From Candidatus Poribacteria bacterium (GTDB lineage Bacteria; Abyssobacteria; SURF-5): a DNA stretch of 5,543 nucleotides. Below, one piece after another: positions 226 through 5,543 of this stretch (positions are counted from its first letter, which is position 1; each line of letters opens with the position of its first letter). The stretch covers positions 1-5,543 of the forward strand of contig JACRIR010000186.1 in NCBI GenBank assembly GCA_016215705.1, read 5' to 3'. Under the pieces are notes generated by a model. That model saw only the letters and a list, made by a program, of their open reading frames with translations, did no database searches and was not told the DNA's origin. Position numbers and translations under genes: made by a program.

Positions 226-241
226 CGAGAATTACTTCTCG
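226..241 (-). terminator. Small hairpin across the stop codon of the HEAT-repeat gene (weak terminator candidate)
   Basis: On the minus strand CGAGAA-GTAA-TTCTCG forms a perfect 6-bp stem with a 4-base loop that holds the TAA stop (232-234). No run of T follows it (the next bases are TCTCCCTGCC), so it is not a classical intrinsic terminator. It could protect the mRNA 3' end or be chance. Confidence 0.2.
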
Positions 242-792
242 GGCAGAACACCACGCAGTTTCAGTTGATATCTTGCCCAACTCCGAACATCTCCCTCGGG
301 ATCATTCGTCATTTGTTTTAGTAGAGATATTGATTCGGTATTGCTAAGATGACCAAGATAATCAGCCACAGCCCAGCGGATTCTCTTATTTGGATGGTGC
401 GCCAATCTCATTATTGTTTTGAAGGGCTTATCACTTTTTGCAATACCCAGATCAAATATCGCTGTTGCCACTATCTCGTCATCCTTATTCTCTAGAAAAC
501 CAATAAAAAGACTTTCCGCTTCGTTCCTGTCTGATTCTATTAGGCCAAGCGCTGCTGCGTGTCTACTCTTTTCAGACGCGTCGACATTCTCATATGTGTG
601 AACCAATAACGGAATAATATGGGGCGAGATTGACTCGATTCTATCATTCGTTGCCAAAATCAACGGCCCACCAGTAGTATGATCTAATCTCCACAAATAG
701 ACGTAGTAAAGCGCAGGATATCTACCAATCCACAAAGCCGTGCCTACTGCAACAATAGCGCATAGCGCCAGTAAGATGTTGCGACTCTTCAT
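232..792 (-). CDS. Membrane-anchored HEAT-repeat protein, candidate immunity protein of the RHS toxin
   Basis: This gene encodes 186 residues. The N-terminus (MKSRN) is positive and is followed by one hydrophobic segment at about 6-22 with no convincing signal-peptidase site. I therefore expect a single anchor with the rest outside the cytoplasm. Residues about 74-180 form HEAT-like helical pairs. Their second helices show repeated patterns such as D-E-I-V-A-T-A-I-F-D-L-G (105-116), K-R-I-R-W-A-V-A-D-Y-L-G (136-147) and G-D-V-R-S-W-A-R-Y-Q-L (167-177). HEAT repeats are protein-binding scaffolds and are known among immunity proteins of polymorphic toxins. The gene starts 13 bases after the RHS stop codon, and the predicted location matches a peptidoglycan-directed toxin. 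I chose the ATG at 792 because it gives the anchor a normal N-terminus and has a spaced Shine-Dalgarno; the in-frame ATG at 897 lies inside the RHS gene and would add 35 unlikely residues. The gene is more AT-rich than the RHS core. The immunity role is inferred from context, not from a recognised family. Confidence 0.8.
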   Translation of the reverse strand: MKSRNILLALCAIVAVGTALWIGRYPALYYVYLWRLDHTTGGPLILATNDRIESISPHIIPLLVHTYENVDASEKSRHAAALGLIESDRNEAESLFIGFLENKDDEIVATAIFDLGIAKSDKPFKTIMRLAHHPNKRIRWAVADYLGHLSNTESISLLKQMTNDPEGDVRSWARYQLKLRGVLPEK

Positions 793-801
793 TTCCTTCA
801 A

Positions 802-807
802 TCCTTT
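802..807 (-). promoter_or_regulatory. Ribosome binding site of the HEAT-repeat gene, overlapping the RHS stop codon
   Basis: On the minus strand AAAGGA lies 9 bases before the ATG at 792 and overlaps the TAA stop (806-808) of the RHS gene. This spacing supports the chosen start and suggests translational coupling of toxin and downstream gene. A second purine run, GAAGGA at 794-799, is only 1 base from the ATG and is too close to be the main site. Confidence 0.6.
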
Positions 808-3800
808 AGGGCACTGGGTACTTGTCGGAGTCCGTGTACACGTAACGCCGTGCAATCGGCTCGCCTTTGAAACCCAATGCACTTGTGGTCCCTTCAATGG
901 TATTCTTCTTTAGACCAAAGTCCGCGTGCTGGTAGATCACTAGACCATTTCCAATGTGGAGCGCTGAATGGTGAGAGCCACCCTCTTTGTACCAAACAAT
1001 GATATCGCCCGGCTGAGCGTCCTCGATTGCAAAATTATCGAGCTTCGTCGCCTCGAAATACACGTCAGCCAAATCTTCAACAAGAGGATAATCGTAGCCG
1101 ATTTCAGGATGCACATCATCTGGATAATCCTTTGCATCTGGATCGCCCTCAATATGAGCAGCCGCAACAAATTCATTGCATCTATTCTTCTTCCCATACC
1201 ATCTGCCTTTCCAATCATCTTTATGGTTGTTATACTGATTTTCAGCCCAATCTACTCGATCCTGAGGAGTCAGGCCAAGTGGATCAATCCAGTTAACGGG
1301 ACCATTCCCAACATACGCATACAGATTCATCCCCCCCGCATACCCAATAGGGTCGCGAGTGATCCATCTGCGGACAACGGGTGAATAGAAGCGGTAGCCG
1401 AAGTAGGAGAGGCCTGTTTCTTGGTCATAAGGCTTGGTTGAGAATTTGAAAGGCTGGGATAAAGTGCCTATCCCGGACATGAGGTTGCCGAAGGCGTCAT
1501 AGGTGTATGCCGCCACCACTTCCTCTGAACCATTCAGCAAGGCAGTGACCTCGCCTTTTCCGTCGTAAAGATACGAATAATTCTGGCCGCCCTGCTTGAG
1601 GTCGAGCAACCCGCCAATGCCTCCGCCGAAATTCAATCCCCACGCATATTCCCTGACAACACTGTTGGCTCCATCGCGTTCTTGCAGCGGCAGGAAGCCG
1701 TCGAGGACAGGTCTGCTTTCTGACACCAAAACATCATTCTCGTATTTCTTCGTATTCGCCAAGAGGCTGTCGCCGCTATAAGAATACTCCGTCCTGTGGA
1801 CTGCGCCGCCACTGCCCGTGTACGTAAGAGTCTTTAGCCGATTCTCAGCGTCGTATTGAGCCGAAAACACGTATCCCTCCGGCGTATAGCCTTGCGTCAT
1901 GTTTCCGTCATCGTCATAGGTGAAAGCTTGCGATGGGTTAGTCGAACTCAGGAGTTGGTTGACGTTGTTGTAGTTGTACGTGATCAGTTCGTTCTGGAAC
2001 GACGTGATCGGGTTGCCGTTGGTTATGGTTTCGCTCGAACGCAGGTCAGGATGCGTTGCATCGCCGTAAGCATAGACAAACTTGTTTATAATATCCAACG
2101 GATTGGTCGAGTATAGGTTCGATATAGCCGTCAGGCGCTTCAAGGTGTCGTATTGATAGGTGGTAATACTGCCGTTGGGACGACTCATGGCTTGAACCAA
2201 CGGATTCGCGCCGGTGTAGCCATACGAATAGGTGTTTTGTCCAACCTGAATGCCTGTCAGCCTGTTGAAGTCGTCATAGTCGTAACCAATAGTTTGGCCG
2301 CCCTGCTGCTCCAACAAGTCCCTTCTGCCCAGATCGTCATAGTGATACGTCAAGGTATCGTCAGCCCATGGGCCGTCAACGCTCGTGACCCTGGAATTGG
2401 CGTCATAGGCATACTGATATGTTCCGACTCCGTCGGTTCTCCGTGTCGGGCGATTATAGTCGTCGTACTCGTATGTCACATCCGGCGTGGTATCGGAGTA
2501 ATCTATGCCCAGAAGGTTATGGTTCTGGTCGTAGGTATAGTCAATGGTTGTCCCTCTGGCATTGGTGTATTGGGCGAGAAGTCCGGCGCCATCATACGAA
2601 ACTGAGAGAGACGCATCGTCGGCGTAAGTCATTTTGACGGGGCGGTCATCCACGTCGTATTCGTAAGTTGTTGCATCGCTGTTGGGATCGATAAGCTCGA
2701 GGAGGTTCCCATTGGCGTCGTACACAAGCTTGACGGTCCCGCCGGGGCCGGTGATTTCTGTAAGGCGCTTGAGGGGATCGTAGGTGTAATTCGCGGTGCG
2801 TCCCGCACGATCGGTCAGGCTGTCCAGCATATGCGGACAGCAGTCAGAATAAGCGTAGCTTTCGAACCTTGCATCCGGCCAGGTAACCGTGGTGACGTTA
2901 TTCAGGTTGTTATACGCAAATGCGAGAGTGAGAGCCGTGGCATCGGTGTAAGTTTCGACCCGGCCTGTGGAATCATAGGTGAGGCCGGCAAGCGTCTGGT
3001 TCCCTCTTGTCACCTGATCGAGATAATGGGCAGGGCTGTAGACGTACTGAGTTACTATATTCCGTAAATCAATCGTATTCGTCTGAGTTTCTATCTGGCC
3101 GTATGTGTTGTAGGCAAAGCTTGTGGTGTTGCCAAGACGATCAGTTATTGAAGTAATATCATGGGCGCTATTGTAAGTGAGGCTTATTGTGCCGAGTCCG
3201 TTTGTGATTTCGAGCAGGTCCACGTCGTTGGGATAATACGTAATCGTCGTCGTTTTGCCTCTGGCATCGGTAATAGATGTAATCCCGTCCATAGAATTGT
3301 ACGCAACCGACCATGTGTGCCCATGCACGTCCTTGATACTGGTTCGGTCGCCGGTCACAGTGTCGTAGCCATAGTCAATGTGCCCGCCGTCCGGATAGAG
3401 AACTCTGCTGATCTCCGTCTGCCGACTCGTGCCTGTCCCGATAAAAGCGAAAGAATACATCGTCTTGGGGGTGTGTATGATGAAATTATTGATTGCATAG
3501 CTTTCCCATTCTATGTAATGCTTCGGACTCACGTACCATGCGTAGCCGGCGCCGCTGTAGTAATACTCCTCTTTTCCCCCCAAAGGATCGGTTACGGTGA
3601 TGCGATAGTTATAGTACATGAATTCCCCGGGAGGAGGATAGATGTCGCTGCTGAAGGGTGTGCCGTCCGACGGCTCCACGTAAAAGGTCCTCGTGCCGCG
3701 TTCATTCCCTATGCTTGCAAGATAGACGTCCTCATCATAGGTGAAGCTCGACCAGTAGCCTCCCATATCCGTGATTTTGGTCAAGTTGCGGTTTGCGTCA

Positions 3801-5543
3801 TACTCGAACAAAGCCGAACGGCCAAGGGGGTCGCCTGCCAAGGTGGCTTGGGTAACCAGTCCGGCAGCATTGTACGTCAGTGTCATTTGCCTGTTCATTG
3901 CATCAGTAACAGTGGTCAGATGCACGTTTGCATCATAGCCGATAGTGAGGGTTTGGCCGTGGGCATCGCTGATTTGGGTCAGGAAAGGTTGAAGAGAGGT
4001 TGTTCCTGCCGGAATGTTATAAGTGTAAACCGTGTCGTCGGGGAATCTCAGTTCAAAATGATTCTCGGCGATCTTGCTGAGTGTGTTGAACACCTGATAT
4101 GGCCGGGTATATCCTCCCGCTCCGTCCGGCGAATAGACGTCGCGTTTGCCGTCAGGCATGAATACGGTGACCTGGCCGGCGGTATCCACCACCAAATAGC
4201 TTCCGTAATTCAATTGCCACTTATTGCCGAAGGGCTCGTTCTGGGCAATGGACGATTGGGAATTATAGCTAAGCGTAAGCTGCATAGGCGGCCCTATAGG
4301 GCTGTTGTACCACAGCGGAGTGTCGGTGACGAAAAGGTTCATGTTGACCATATTCACCGACCAGGCGGGAGCTCCCATCGGGCAACCGATCAGACCAGTT
4401 GGCGCAGCGTTGCGTCCGGGATTCCCCAGATTACCCTCCCCGATTGGAACGCCGCAACAGCCGCCATAGATTTCTTCCATTTCGGTTTCGTTCAAAGCGA
4501 TTCCCGGCAAATCCACCCTATCTGAGAATACCAGGGCGATGCCGCTCCATTCCCTCGAAAACTCTTCGGGACTTTGCGAGAATCTGCGGCCCGATTGGGG
4601 GTCAAACAGATTGAGATCTTCGCCTTCAACCTTTTCCAGAATCCAGTAGTGTCCGCTATTGCCTTCGTTTCGACCGCTTATGTGCACGATTGCGGGGAGC
4701 GGCAACTTCTTGTGCCACAGGGTCGAATGGCCAGCCGCAGCGTCTGAGGGCGGGATTCTGATCGCGGCAAATTCATGCCCATATTTCGACGCGATGTCCG
4801 AAAGGTCTCGTATGCTTTGTCCTTGGAGTGTTTCGGGTTTAAGTTCCAATAAATCTCTGGCGTCGTTCTCCCTGCCCTCTTTCTCCAACACGTAAGCCAA
4901 CGCTTGAGTCCCGCATGTGAGCATTGCGCGCTCGTTCGCGGTATACCTGGATAGCCGCTGAATCCAGTGGGAGGCATATGTGCGGTCACGCCAGTCCGAA
5001 CTCTGCATCTTCAGATCACGAAACAGTTCCTGCGCACGGCCAAAGTTGTTCTGATAAACCTTCAAGACACCCAGGCGCAACGTGGCTTTGTTCCTCAAAA
5101 TTCTGGCGCCTTCGTAATCTTTGCCCTTGTTTTGCACCAGTATCCATTCGAAGCTCTCCTCGGCTTCGGAATATCTGCCATTGTACTGCGCGTCACATCC
5201 CATGTGCAAGACCGCCTCCGACGCCCAGGGACTATCCGGATATTGCTCGATATGTTTCTTGAACAGCTTTGTGGCCTTCTTGTATTCGTGCTTGTTCCAT
5301 TCCTGAATGGCCTCGCCGAAGGAAAGGTTAACTTCTTGTTCCTTCTGCTTATCGCCCATCTCATGCGTGGGGTAGAGCGGGCCTCCGAGCTGGCCGGCAG
5401 CAATGAGGTCTTCGATTGCGGGAGGTCTCGAGAGGTCTAACGGCTTTACGGAAGGGCCAACCTTGGGAACCGCGGGCGCGGCGTGTGCGGGCGCTGTCAG
5501 AACGGCTGCCAAGATTACAAGACAAAGCAATGCTGTCTTCTTC
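806..5543 (-). CDS. Secreted C39-peptidase/RHS YD-repeat polymorphic toxin with NlpC/P60-like tip (5' end just outside window)
   Basis: The open frame runs from the right edge to TAA at 806-808, 1578 full codons. Residues are numbered from the in-frame TTG at 5530. Domain order: signal peptide (to about 17), TPR-like helices (70-172), C39-like peptidase (195-338), double-glycine-type site (346-357), RHS N-terminal beta domain (about 385-510), YD repeats (515-1350) with an irregular Tyr-rich insert at about 620-715, RHS core (1371-1420), and a 154-residue tip (1421-1574) with a Cys/His hydrolase signature. RHS repeats are known to build a hollow shell that encloses a C-terminal toxin, and the core releases the toxin by self-cleavage after DPxGL. 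The tip should act on the cell wall. Unlike T6SS Rhs effectors, the N-terminus has a Sec signal instead of a PAAR domain, so the route across any outer membrane is unknown. The TTG is not the likely start: upstream codons K-K-T-A extend the signal peptide, and the last base, G at 5543 on the minus strand, could be the G of an ATG. Confidence 0.93.
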   Translation of the reverse strand, partial: KKTALLCLVILAAVLTAPAHAAPAVPKVGPSVKPLDLSRPPAIEDLIAAGQLGGPLYPTHEMGDKQKEQEVNLSFGEAIQEWNKHEYKKATKLFKKHIEQYPDSPWASEAVLHMGCDAQYNGRYSEAEESFEWILVQNKGKDYEGARILRNKATLRLGVLKVYQNNFGRAQELFRDLKMQSSDWRDRTYASHWIQRLSRYTANERAMLTCGTQALAYVLEKEGRENDARDLLELKPETLQGQSIRDLSDIASKYGHEFAAIRIPPSDAAAGHSTLWHKKLPLPAIVHISGRNEGNSGHYWILEKVEGEDLNLFDPQSGRRFSQSPEEFSREWSGIALVFSDRVDLPGIALNETEMEEIYGGCCGVPIGEGNLGNPGRNAAPTGLIGCPMGAPAWSVNMVNMNLFVTDTPLWYNSPIGPPMQLTLSYNSQSSIAQNEPFGNKWQLNYGSYLVVDTAGQVTVFMPDGKRDVYSPDGAGGYTRPYQVFNTLSKIAENHFELRFPDDTVYTYNIPAGTTSLQPFLTQISDAHGQTLTIGYDANVHLTTVTDAMNRQMTLTYNAAGLVTQATLAGDPLGRSALFEYDANRNLTKITDMGGYWSSFTYDEDVYLASIGNERGTRTFYVEPSDGTPFSSDIYPPPGEFMYYNYRITVTDPLGGKEEYYYSGAGYAWYVSPKHYIEWESYAINNFIIHTPKTMYSFAFIGTGTSRQTEISRVLYPDGGHIDYGYDTVTGDRTSIKDVHGHTWSVAYNSMDGITSITDARGKTTTITYYPNDVDLLEITNGLGTISLTYNSAHDITSITDRLGNTTSFAYNTYGQIETQTNTIDLRNIVTQYVYSPAHYLDQVTRGNQTLAGLTYDSTGRVETYTDATALTLAFAYNNLNNVTTVTWPDARFESYAYSDCCPHMLDSLTDRAGRTANYTYDPLKRLTEITGPGGTVKLVYDANGNLLELIDPNSDATTYEYDVDDRPVKMTYADDASLSVSYDGAGLLAQYTNARGTTIDYTYDQNHNLLGIDYSDTTPDVTYEYDDYNRPTRRTDGVGTYQYAYDANSRVTSVDGPWADDTLTYHYDDLGRRDLLEQQGGQTIGYDYDDFNRLTGIQVGQNTYSYGYTGANPLVQAMSRPNGSITTYQYDTLKRLTAISNLYSTNPLDIINKFVYAYGDATHPDLRSSETITNGNPITSFQNELITYNYNNVNQLLSSTNPSQAFTYDDDGNMTQGYTPEGYVFSAQYDAENRLKTLTYTGSGGAVHRTEYSYSGDSLLANTKKYENDVLVSESRPVLDGFLPLQERDGANSVVREYAWGLNFGGGIGGLLDLKQGGQNYSYLYDGKGEVTALLNGSEEVVAAYTYDAFGNLMSGIGTLSQPFKFSTKPYDQETGLSYFGYRFYSPVVRRWITRDPIGYAGGMNLYAYVGNGPVNWIDPLGLTPQDRVDWAENQYNNHKDDWKGRWYGKKNRCNEFVAAAHIEGDPDAKDYPDDVHPEIGYDYPLVEDLADVYFEATKLDNFAIEDAQPGDIIVWYKEGGSHHSALHIGNGLVIYQHADFGLKKNTIEGTTSALGFKGEPIARRYVYTDSDKYPVP
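809..1270 (-). other. Variable C-terminal toxin tip, NlpC/P60- or CHAP-like cysteine hydrolase (residues 1421-1574)
   Basis: The tip begins right after DPLGL. It has R-C-N-E-F-V at 1450-1455, which places C1451 at the start of a helix as in papain-like cell-wall hydrolases; then Q-P-G-D-I-I-V-W at 1506-1513, the NlpC/P60 and CHAP strand motif; then H-H-S-A-L-H-I-G-N-G at 1520-1529, where H1521 aligns best with the catalytic His; and Q1534-H1535 as candidates for the third polar residue. The order Cys before His is the ordinary, non-permuted one. This family cuts peptidoglycan peptides or amide bonds. Which bond is cut cannot be read here, and an amidase or transglutaminase-like variant remains possible. 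Confidence 0.7.
1271..1420 (-). other. RHS core domain with self-cleavage motif (residues 1371-1420)
   Basis: This segment carries the RHS-associated core consensus: G-L-S-Y-F-G-Y-R-F-Y-S-P, then R-W-I-T-R-D-P-I-G (D1393), N-L-Y-A-Y-V-G-N-G-P, and the closing D-P-L-G-L (D1416 to L1420). In studied Rhs effectors this region acts as an aspartyl protease and cuts just after the final leucine. Both aspartates are present, so cleavage before T1421 is expected. Confidence 0.9.
1481..3988 (-). repeat. YD (RHS) repeat array, more than 20 degenerate units (residues about 515-1350)
   Basis: The protein repeats a pattern of about 20-22 residues ending in Y-D-x-x-G/N-R/N, for example YDANRN (577), YDPLKR (918), YDANGN (938), YDDYNR (1022), YDDLGR (1064), YDDFNR (1085), YDAENR (1226) and YDAFGN (1344). 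I count more than 20 YD or YN units. Such repeats form the beta-sheet strip that spirals into the RHS shell. At DNA level the units are diverged, with only short shared words such as TCGTCATAG on the plus strand, so recent tandem expansion is not evident. A Tyr-rich, non-repeat insert at about 620-715 (PPPGEFMYYNYR, later AWYVSPKHYIEW) interrupts the array. Confidence 0.92.
4001..4378 (-). other. RHS N-terminal beta domain ahead of the repeats (residues about 385-510)
   Basis: Residues about 388-422 read S-V-N-M-V-N-M-N-L-F-V-T-D-T-P-L, followed by G-P-P-M-Q-L-T-L-S-Y-N-S. This resembles the conserved entry segment that precedes YD repeats in many large RHS proteins (similar in place to DUF6531). 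A beta-rich stretch follows, with F-G-N-K-W-Q-L-N-Y at 434-442 and the D-G motifs M-P-D-G-K-R-D-V-Y-S-P-D-G at 458-470. It probably forms the first turns or plug of the shell. No catalytic motif is visible. Confidence 0.6.
4460..4495 (-). other. Candidate double-glycine cleavage site embedded behind the C39 domain (residues 346-357)
   Basis: The residues L-N-E-T-E-M-E-E-I-Y-G-G match the double-glycine leader consensus LSxxELxxIxGG at every key place: L at -12, E at -8, M at -7, I at -4, G-G at -2/-1. The segment starts about 8 residues after the C39 domain ends, and the residue after the cut would be C358. The match is seen directly; that it is cut by the domain next to it is inferred. Confidence 0.5.
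4517..4948 (-). other. C39-like cysteine peptidase domain (residues about 195-338)
   Basis: The segment T-C-G-T-Q-A-L-A-Y-V-L (205-215) fits the C39 catalytic-cysteine helix (C206). S-G-H-Y-W-I-L-E-K (292-300) supplies H294 and N-L-F-D-P-Q-S-G (307-314) supplies D310, with the usual order and H-to-D spacing. C39 peptidases normally remove double-glycine leaders from bacteriocins at ABC exporters; here there is no transporter part. The oxyanion-hole glutamine expected six residues before the cysteine is E200, so activity could be altered or lost. Confidence 0.75.
5015..5323 (-). other. TPR-like helical repeats (residues about 70-172)
   Basis: Three helical pairs with TPR spacing are visible: H-E-Y-K-K-A-T-K-L-F-K-K (81-92) followed by Y-P-D-S-P-W-A-S-E-A (97-106), G-R-Y-S-E-A-E-E-S-F-E-W (118-129), and N-N-F-G-R-A-Q-E-L-F-R-D (161-172). 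The Y-P-x-S-x-x-A pattern is typical of TPRs in periplasmic proteins of the YbgF/BamD kind. The likely role is binding a protein partner or positioning the peptidase domain. Confidence 0.65.
5480..5543 (-). other. Sec signal peptide of the RHS protein (start codon outside window)
   Basis: Read in frame, the visible N-terminus is K-K-T-A-L-L-C-L-V-I-L-A-A-V-L-T-A-P-A-H-A, followed by A-P-A-V-P. It has a positive n-region, a hydrophobic h-region and an A-H-A signal peptidase I site, with the cut expected after residue 17. The cysteine at residue 3 is inside the h-region without a lipobox. This predicts export across the inner membrane. Confidence 0.8.

What the first reader, a model, noticed from the sequence alone, without database searches (positions are those of the whole stretch)
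4460..4948. C39 peptidase domain followed by its own double-glycine-type substrate site in one RHS protein
Residues 195-338 have the C39 catalytic set (C206, H294, D310). Only about 8 residues further on, L-N-E-T-E-M-E-E-I-Y-G-G (346-357) matches the double-glycine leader consensus at -12, -8, -7, -4, -2 and -1. C39 peptidases normally cut this motif in bacteriocin precursors. Finding both in one toxin suggests that the protein cuts itself after G357, freeing the TPR/C39 part from the RHS shell. With the core cleavage after DPLGL this would give a three-piece maturation. I am not aware of this cis arrangement being described as a maturation step.
Basis: partly seen in the sequence, partly recalled or inferred. 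Interest (0 to 1): 0.7.

Follow-up and report, generated by a model that had tools for sequence, protein, structure and literature searches.

The report
Rhs toxin with built-in self-cutting site
A large bacterial Rhs toxin carries, side by side in one chain, a bacteriocin-type peptidase and the exact cutting signal that such peptidases recognise, and relatives in several phyla keep both, so the toxin very probably trims its own front end during maturation.

Summary
The minus-strand Rhs protein has the order signal peptide, TPR, C39 peptidase, double-glycine motif, Rhs shell, DPLGL, C-terminal toxin. The motif LNETEMEEIYGG follows 8 residues later. It is not chance. Among 31 C39-Rhs proteins outside Alphaproteobacteria, many under 30% identical to the window, 27 carry a strict motif (G[GAS] plus hydrophobic -4, -7, -12; 1.5 expected in shuffles). 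Elsewhere in the same proteins such windows occur at 1.7%. C39-ABC transporters show it at chance level (1 of 24), and the Rhs shells without C39 that I could inspect lack it. Best explanation: the C39 cuts its own chain after G361, releasing TPR-C39 from the shell. Cleavage itself is not shown. Two facts weigh against it: Rhs-linked C39s lack the presumed oxyanion Gln (1/36, against 24/25 in transporters), and five alphaproteobacterial homologues keep C/H/D but have G-K. Three-piece maturation is already known in T6SS Rhs effectors; the C39/GG agent appears new.

The parts
806..5542 (-). Rhs polymorphic-toxin gene, 1578 aa (P0001); the start codon lies beyond the contig edge
   Evidence: Pfam RHS_repeat 2e-51, Rhs_assc_core TIGR03696 6e-25
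5477..5542 (-). Sec-type signal peptide, aa about 1-22 (...CLVILAAVLTAPAHA|APA)
   Evidence: read from the sequence; L005, L006 and L041 also begin with a hydrophobic signal-like stretch. No signal-peptide program was run.
4955..5365 (-). TPR domain (YbgF/BamD-like), aa about 60-196
   Evidence: TIGR02795 5e-7 and BamD 6.5e-7; Foldseek 2xev YbgF TPR; VIA Z 13.7
4517..4948 (-). Peptidase C39 domain, aa 199-342
   Evidence: PF03412 2e-16; best Foldseek match 6mpz_D, a double-glycine protease crystallised with leader peptide, E 1.9e-4
4913..4915 (-). catalytic Cys210
   Evidence: alignment to C39 family; Cys in 36 of 36 C39-Rhs
4649..4651 (-). catalytic His298
   Evidence: His in 36 of 36
4601..4603 (-). 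catalytic Asp314
   Evidence: Asp in 32 of 36, Glu in 3, Gly in 1
4460..4495 (-). double-glycine-type motif LNETEMEEIYGG, aa 350-361; predicted cut after G361
   Evidence: predicted helix over this segment in both models
4385..4459 (-). Cys/Gly-rich linker CCGVPIGEGNLGNPGRNAAPTGLIG, aa 362-386; C362 would be the new N-terminus
   Evidence: sequence; low-confidence, disordered in the model
1271..4384 (-). Rhs shell, aa 387-1424, ending in core motif DPLGL (bases 1271-1285)
   Evidence: Foldseek 8qja Rhs core 3.9e-40 and 7q97 RhsA 1.5e-38 (model of low global confidence)
806..1270 (-). C-terminal toxin domain, NlpC/P60-like (predicted cell-wall peptidase)
   Evidence: PF00877 E 0.009, below Pfam's cut-off; weak PDB matches to NlpC/P60 proteins; the nearest relative L041 is 62% identical up to aa 1424 and unrelated after it
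232..792 (-). downstream ORF, start 13 bp after the Rhs stop: N-terminal membrane helix plus HEAT repeats; candidate immunity protein
   Evidence: HEAT_2 1.7e-14; start codon at 792; immunity role inferred from position only

Best explanation
The C39 domain and the double-glycine segment are a matched enzyme and substrate in one polypeptide. After Sec export and folding, the short amphipathic helix ETEMEEIY (L-12, M-7 and I-4 facing one way) docks in the hydrophobic groove of the C39 domain, the GG threads to Cys210, and the chain is cut after Gly361. This detaches the TPR-C39 part from the Rhs shell, whose new N-terminus would be Cys362. A separate cut after DPLGL by the Rhs aspartyl core would free the NlpC/P60-like toxin inside the shell. 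Shown here: domain order, catalytic residues, the motif, its conservation with C39 and its absence without C39. Inferred: that cleavage happens, that it is intramolecular, where and when it happens, and that it frees the shell from an envelope-bound TPR module.
For: (1) Strict motif in 27 of 31 C39-Rhs proteins against 1.53 expected; 1 of 24 C39-ABC transporters; 26 of 31 at the fixed spacing against 1.7% of other windows in the same proteins. (2) Across 31 proteins, hydrophobic residues at -12 (97%), -7 (97%) and -4 (94%), Gly at -2 (100%), Gly or Ala at -1 (100%), with mainly variable polar residues between; 26 of 31 lie 20-24 residues after the C39 domain (the register was chosen by score, so these percentages lean upwards). 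These are the positions that LahT contacts, and GG, GA and GS are the known cut sites (PMC6363468; PMC10885120). (3) Cys and His 36 of 36, Asp 32 of 36. (4) Inspected Rhs shells without C39 lack the motif: L042, 51% identical in the shell, L109 and L125, L104. (5) Same order TPR-C39-motif-Rhs in distant relatives L052, L045, L053. (6) The motif is predicted helical, and the C39 model's best PDB match is 6mpz. (7) The genome has three C39 genes: this one and two frames of 279 and 228 aa, too short for a C39-ABC transporter, so no transporter is seen that could cut in trans (92% complete assembly).
Against: The presumed oxyanion Gln at Cys-6 is present in only 1 of 36 Rhs-linked C39s against 24 of 25 transporters, although PMC6363468 finds this Gln 4.3 A from the oxygen and doubts its role. 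Five alphaproteobacterial homologues keep C/H/D but have Gly-Lys instead of Gly-Gly. No coordinates, PAE or biochemical data show that the segment reaches Cys210; model confidence falls to about 59 over the helix and below 50 after it.
Confidence: 0.7

Rival explanations
1. Binding without cutting: the C39 domain has become a docking module that holds the GG helix as an intramolecular latch between TPR-C39 and the shell, like the cysteine-less C39-like domain of haemolysin transporters.
For: Loss of the presumed oxyanion Gln (1 of 36); Gly-Lys in alphaproteobacterial homologues; Foldseek also finds 3zua, 'A C39-like domain'.
Against: Cys and His are kept in 36 of 36 and Asp in 32 of 36; a pure binding site would not need Gly at -2 in every sequence and Gly/Ala at -1.
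Confidence: 0.15
2. Cut in trans: the motif is cut by the C39 domain of another copy of the same protein, or by another C39 peptidase of the cell.
For: C39 enzymes normally act in trans; two other C39-type genes exist in the genome (G000:C138 and C185).
Against: The motif is tied to the presence of C39 in the same chain: shells without C39 lack it; no C39 transporter was found in this genome.
Confidence: 0.1
3. No proteolysis: the segment is a conserved structural helix and turn closing the C39 fold and leading into the Rhs plug; its likeness to a leader is incidental.
For: The spacing from the C39 domain is nearly constant, as a structural element would be.
Against: C39 domains of transporters lack it (1 of 24); the variation is limited to GG and GA, known C39 cut sites, outside one clade; helix positions between the contact residues vary freely.
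Confidence: 0.05

Closest known systems
PCAT/AMS transporters with N-terminal C39 (ComA, LahT, PCAT1) and double-glycine leader peptides
   Same: Peptidase fold, Cys/His/Asp, leader helix with hydrophobic -4, -7, -12 and GG/GA at the cut
   Different: No ABC transporter domain here; enzyme and substrate are one chain with the motif C-terminal to the enzyme; protein apparently Sec-exported; presumed oxyanion Gln lost
T6SS Rhs effectors cut at both ends (RhsA, TseI, Photorhabdus Rhs1)
   Same: Rhs shell, PxxxxDPxGL-type core, three expected pieces NT/shell/CT
   Different: There the N-terminal cut is attributed to nearby acidic residues or to an unknown mechanism; no C39 reported; PAAR/prePAAR instead of signal peptide and TPR; the window genome shows no TssC
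Polymorphic toxins with releasing peptidases and Tox-PLC39 (Zhang et al. 2012, PMC3482391)
   Same: Autoprocessing peptidase idea; a C39-like domain in a toxin
   Different: [quoted passage not shown] Tox-PLC39 is filed as a toxin. Here C39 lies N-terminal of the shell with its own substrate motif
Haemolysin-type C39-like domain (CLD, PDB 3zua)
   Same: C39 fold
   Different: Known (own knowledge) as lacking the catalytic Cys; here Cys is invariant

Membership tests
Peptidase C39 (PF03412) | Profile match above the curated cut-off | tested here: met
   60.4 bits against 22
Peptidase C39 (PF03412) | Catalytic Cys, His, Asp | tested here: met
   C210, H298, D314
Peptidase C39 (PF03412) | Gln at Cys-6 (presumed oxyanion residue; not required by the Pfam definition) | tested here: not met
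   Glu in the window; 1 of 36 C39-Rhs against 24 of 25 transporters; role doubted in PMC6363468
Peptidase C39 (PF03412) | Peptidase activity after GG/GA/GS | not testable with these tools
   no biochemistry
Double-glycine leader site | G[GAS] with hydrophobic -4, -7, -12 on a helix | tested here: met
   LNETEMEEIYGG; predicted helix
PCAT/AMS transporter | ABC transmembrane and ATPase domains | tested here: not met
   none in the Pfam scan
Rhs polymorphic toxin | YD repeats and Rhs-associated core ending in DPxGL | tested here: met
   PF05593, TIGR03696; DPLGL at aa 1420-1424
Rhs polymorphic toxin | Exchangeable C-terminal toxin after the core | tested here: met
   L041 is 62% identical up to aa 1424, no alignment after it
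T6SS Rhs effector | N-terminal PAAR/prePAAR and a T6SS in the cell | tested here: not met
   no PAAR in the Pfam scan; no TssC/VipB in the genome (assembly 92% complete)
Tox-PLC39 toxin domain | C39 at the C-terminal end as the toxin | tested here: not met
   C39 lies N-terminal of the shell; the C-terminus is NlpC/P60-like
NlpC/P60 toxin | Profile match above cut-off | tested here: inconclusive
   PF00877 16.4 bits against 23; PDB NlpC matches E 0.02-0.3

The most novel reading that the evidence does not exclude
A widespread class of Sec-exported Rhs toxins matures through a single-chain C39 peptidase/double-glycine cassette, and this branch of C39 has a changed active site (no oxyanion Gln) suited to one-time cutting of its own chain. 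It would be a further way to cut the N-terminus of Rhs proteins.
Probability: 0.55. Interest if true: 0.72.

Novelty: new variant of a known kind. Interest (0 to 1): 0.62.

Why it matters
C39 peptidases are known as leader-clipping gates of ABC transporters acting on small peptides in trans. Here the same recognition code is reused inside giant Rhs toxins, enzyme and substrate in one chain, in proteins that appear to be exported by Sec. The N-terminal cut of the T6SS Rhs effector RhsA was still of unknown mechanism in its structure paper (PMC8765631), so a dedicated, recognisable cutting cassette gives a clean testable case: one cysteine, one site, a predicted new N-terminus. It also lets genome annotators split these proteins into release module, shell and toxin by sequence alone.

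Tried and rejected
A six-sequence alignment including the alphaproteobacterial homologues had no stretch conserved enough for a contig scan, so three closer sequences were used; that scan gave only two further C39-Rhs proteins (L041, and L043, which is the same protein as in genome G088). Literature searches for C39 or double-glycine with Rhs/YD repeats gave nothing that describes this arrangement; the library lacks most subscription papers. A T6SS route was considered and dropped for lack of TssC and PAAR. The second structure model (shell) was poor overall (pTM 0.32) and was used only for fold identity. VIA-align rows were filled by the TPR part and say little on C39. A tree of C39 domains did not settle whether the C39-Rhs fusion arose once or several times: four changes on the best tree, one origin not excluded. 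Other Rhs loci of the same genome were too fragmentary or of another type (SpvB-like) to serve as strong controls.
Full report
What is there. Its minus strand is filled by one open frame of 1578 aa, 5542 to 806, whose start codon is cut off by the contig edge. The order is: signal peptide (read by eye), TPR domain, Peptidase_C39 (PF03412, aa 209-342, 60.4 bits against a cut-off of 22), a double-glycine-type segment (aa 350-361), a Cys/Gly-rich linker, DUF6531 and an Rhs shell with the Rhs-associated core, DPLGL at aa 1420-1424, and a C-terminal domain with weak NlpC/P60 similarity. A second minus-strand gene, starting 13 bp downstream, encodes a membrane helix plus HEAT repeats and is a candidate immunity protein by position only.

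Is it more than chance? I gathered homologues from whole genomes, plasmids and genome contigs. The nearest, L041 (a Nitrospirae MAG), reads KLAESEMGRVFGG; others read LLSKKEMKISWGG (L005, same family as the window), FLSEKEMERIRGA (L043, a Nitrospinae MAG), ELKPQEMAKIWGG, PVSEEGMKTIIGG and VLNLKQMKLISGG (three paralogues in one genome), IIQLALMERIRGG, and many more in one further phylum. Counting over 31 such proteins, 27 have G[GAS] with hydrophobic residues at -4, -7 and -12 in the 46 residues after the domain, with 1.53 expected from shuffles; among 24 C39-ABC transporters the count is 1 with 1.4 expected. At the fixed spacing it is 26 of 31, against 28 of 1695 equal windows elsewhere in the same proteins. 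The sequences are homologous, so the p-value overstates independence. The pattern by position is the stronger argument: -12, -7 and -4 are hydrophobic in 94-97%, -2 is Gly in all, -1 is Gly or Ala in all, while positions such as -11, -14, -6 and -3 are mainly polar and variable (the register was picked by score, which leans these figures upwards). That is the contact pattern of the leader peptide bound to the C39 enzyme LahT (PMC6363468), and GG, GA and GS are the accepted cut sites (PMC10885120).

Is the motif tied to C39? The Rhs shells without C39 that I could inspect lack it: L042, whose shell is 51% identical to the window's, L109 and L125 from the C39-rich phylum, and L104. This is a small set. 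One apparent exception, L112, is cut by its contig edge just where C39 would be and begins with the motif. C39 proteins fused to other domains, such as a DUF1573-like domain, also lack it. A protein from another phylum, L094, which has no Pfam Rhs match, has C39 followed by LLSKQRMKEIRGA, but its Asp is not conserved. The order TPR, C39, motif, Rhs recurs in distant relatives.

Is the enzyme intact? Cys and His are kept in 36 of 36 Rhs-linked C39 domains and Asp in 32 of 36, with Glu in 3. The Gln six residues before Cys, proposed as oxyanion stabiliser, is present in only 1 of 36 but in 24 of 25 transporter domains. The LahT co-crystal study found this Gln 4.3 A from the oxygen and suggested that the catalytic His may serve instead (PMC6363468), so its loss does not settle the matter. 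I read it as a sign either of an enzyme tuned for one-time cutting of its own chain or, less likely, of a binding-only domain.

Structure. AlphaFold2 on aa 60-399 with three sequences gave mean pLDDT 71, a TPR solenoid, a C39 fold, and a helix over the motif ending at the GG; the top Foldseek hit was 6mpz, the double-glycine protease crystallised with a leader peptide. The shell model was poor overall but matched Rhs cocoons first, and again showed the motif as a helix.

Mechanism. Most likely the chain is exported by Sec, folds, and cuts itself after G361, releasing TPR-C39 from the shell. The shell then keeps the toxin until the DPLGL core cut and delivery. Domain content, residues and conservation are shown; the cut, its cis nature, its compartment and its purpose are inferred. 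A trans-acting C39 transporter is unlikely in this genome: only three C39 genes were found, and the other two frames are 279 and 228 aa. A T6SS route is unlikely: no TssC was found in a 92% complete assembly and no PAAR in the protein.

Evidence against. Five alphaproteobacterial plasmid homologues keep C, H and D and the hydrophobic pattern but have Gly-Lys at the cut. Either the S1 pocket differs there or the activity is lost.

What is known. T6SS Rhs proteins are cut on both sides of the shell. In RhsA the N-terminal mechanism was left open, in TseI acidic residues are responsible, and in Photorhabdus Rhs1 aspartates were mutated (PMC8765631; PMC8636562). So the three-piece outcome is not new. 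[quoted passage not shown] I found no description of a C39 with its own double-glycine site in an Rhs protein, within an open-access library only. One plasmid record already names such a protein 'Rhs repeat-associated core/peptidase C39-like', so the fusion itself is visible to annotators; the substrate site is the new part. C-terminal exchange is clear from the window against L041: 62% identity up to aa 1424 and nothing after.

Verdict. Real, conserved, and best explained as a self-processing cassette; a new variant of a known kind. Confidence that the protein cuts itself after G361: about 0.7.

Noticed in passing
window 232-792, minus strand: Gene starting 13 bp after the Rhs stop with a membrane helix and HEAT repeats; candidate immunity protein for a periplasmic NlpC/P60-like toxin.
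   Followed up: partly
window 4913-4933 and the C39 domains of L006-L010, L038-L081: Rhs-linked C39 domains lack the Gln at Cys-6 that nearly all C39 transporter domains keep, although Cys and His are invariant.
   Followed up: partly
L006-L010 (alphaproteobacterial plasmids): C39-Rhs proteins with Gly-Lys-Gly at the expected cut; in L006, L007 and L009 a short separate YD-repeat ORF lies directly upstream.
   Followed up: partly
L094, C39 then LLSKQRMKEIRGA: C39 plus GA motif in a large beta-repeat protein without a Pfam Rhs match; catalytic Asp not conserved.
   Followed up: partly
L020, L023, L029, L078, L089, L090: C39 domains that lack the Gln and are followed by what looks like a DUF1573-type domain (judged by eye), without any GG motif: another C39 architecture.
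   Followed up: no
window 4454-4459; L041, L047, L051, L053: Cys directly after the GG in several members, and Cys clusters in the linker; the cut would expose an N-terminal Cys.
   Followed up: no
G278 and its phylum (L050-L079): 17 of 68 genomes of this phylum had a C39-profile match at E 1e-14, most of them large C39-Rhs proteins, with open frames up to 6570 aa, often several per genome.
   Followed up: partly
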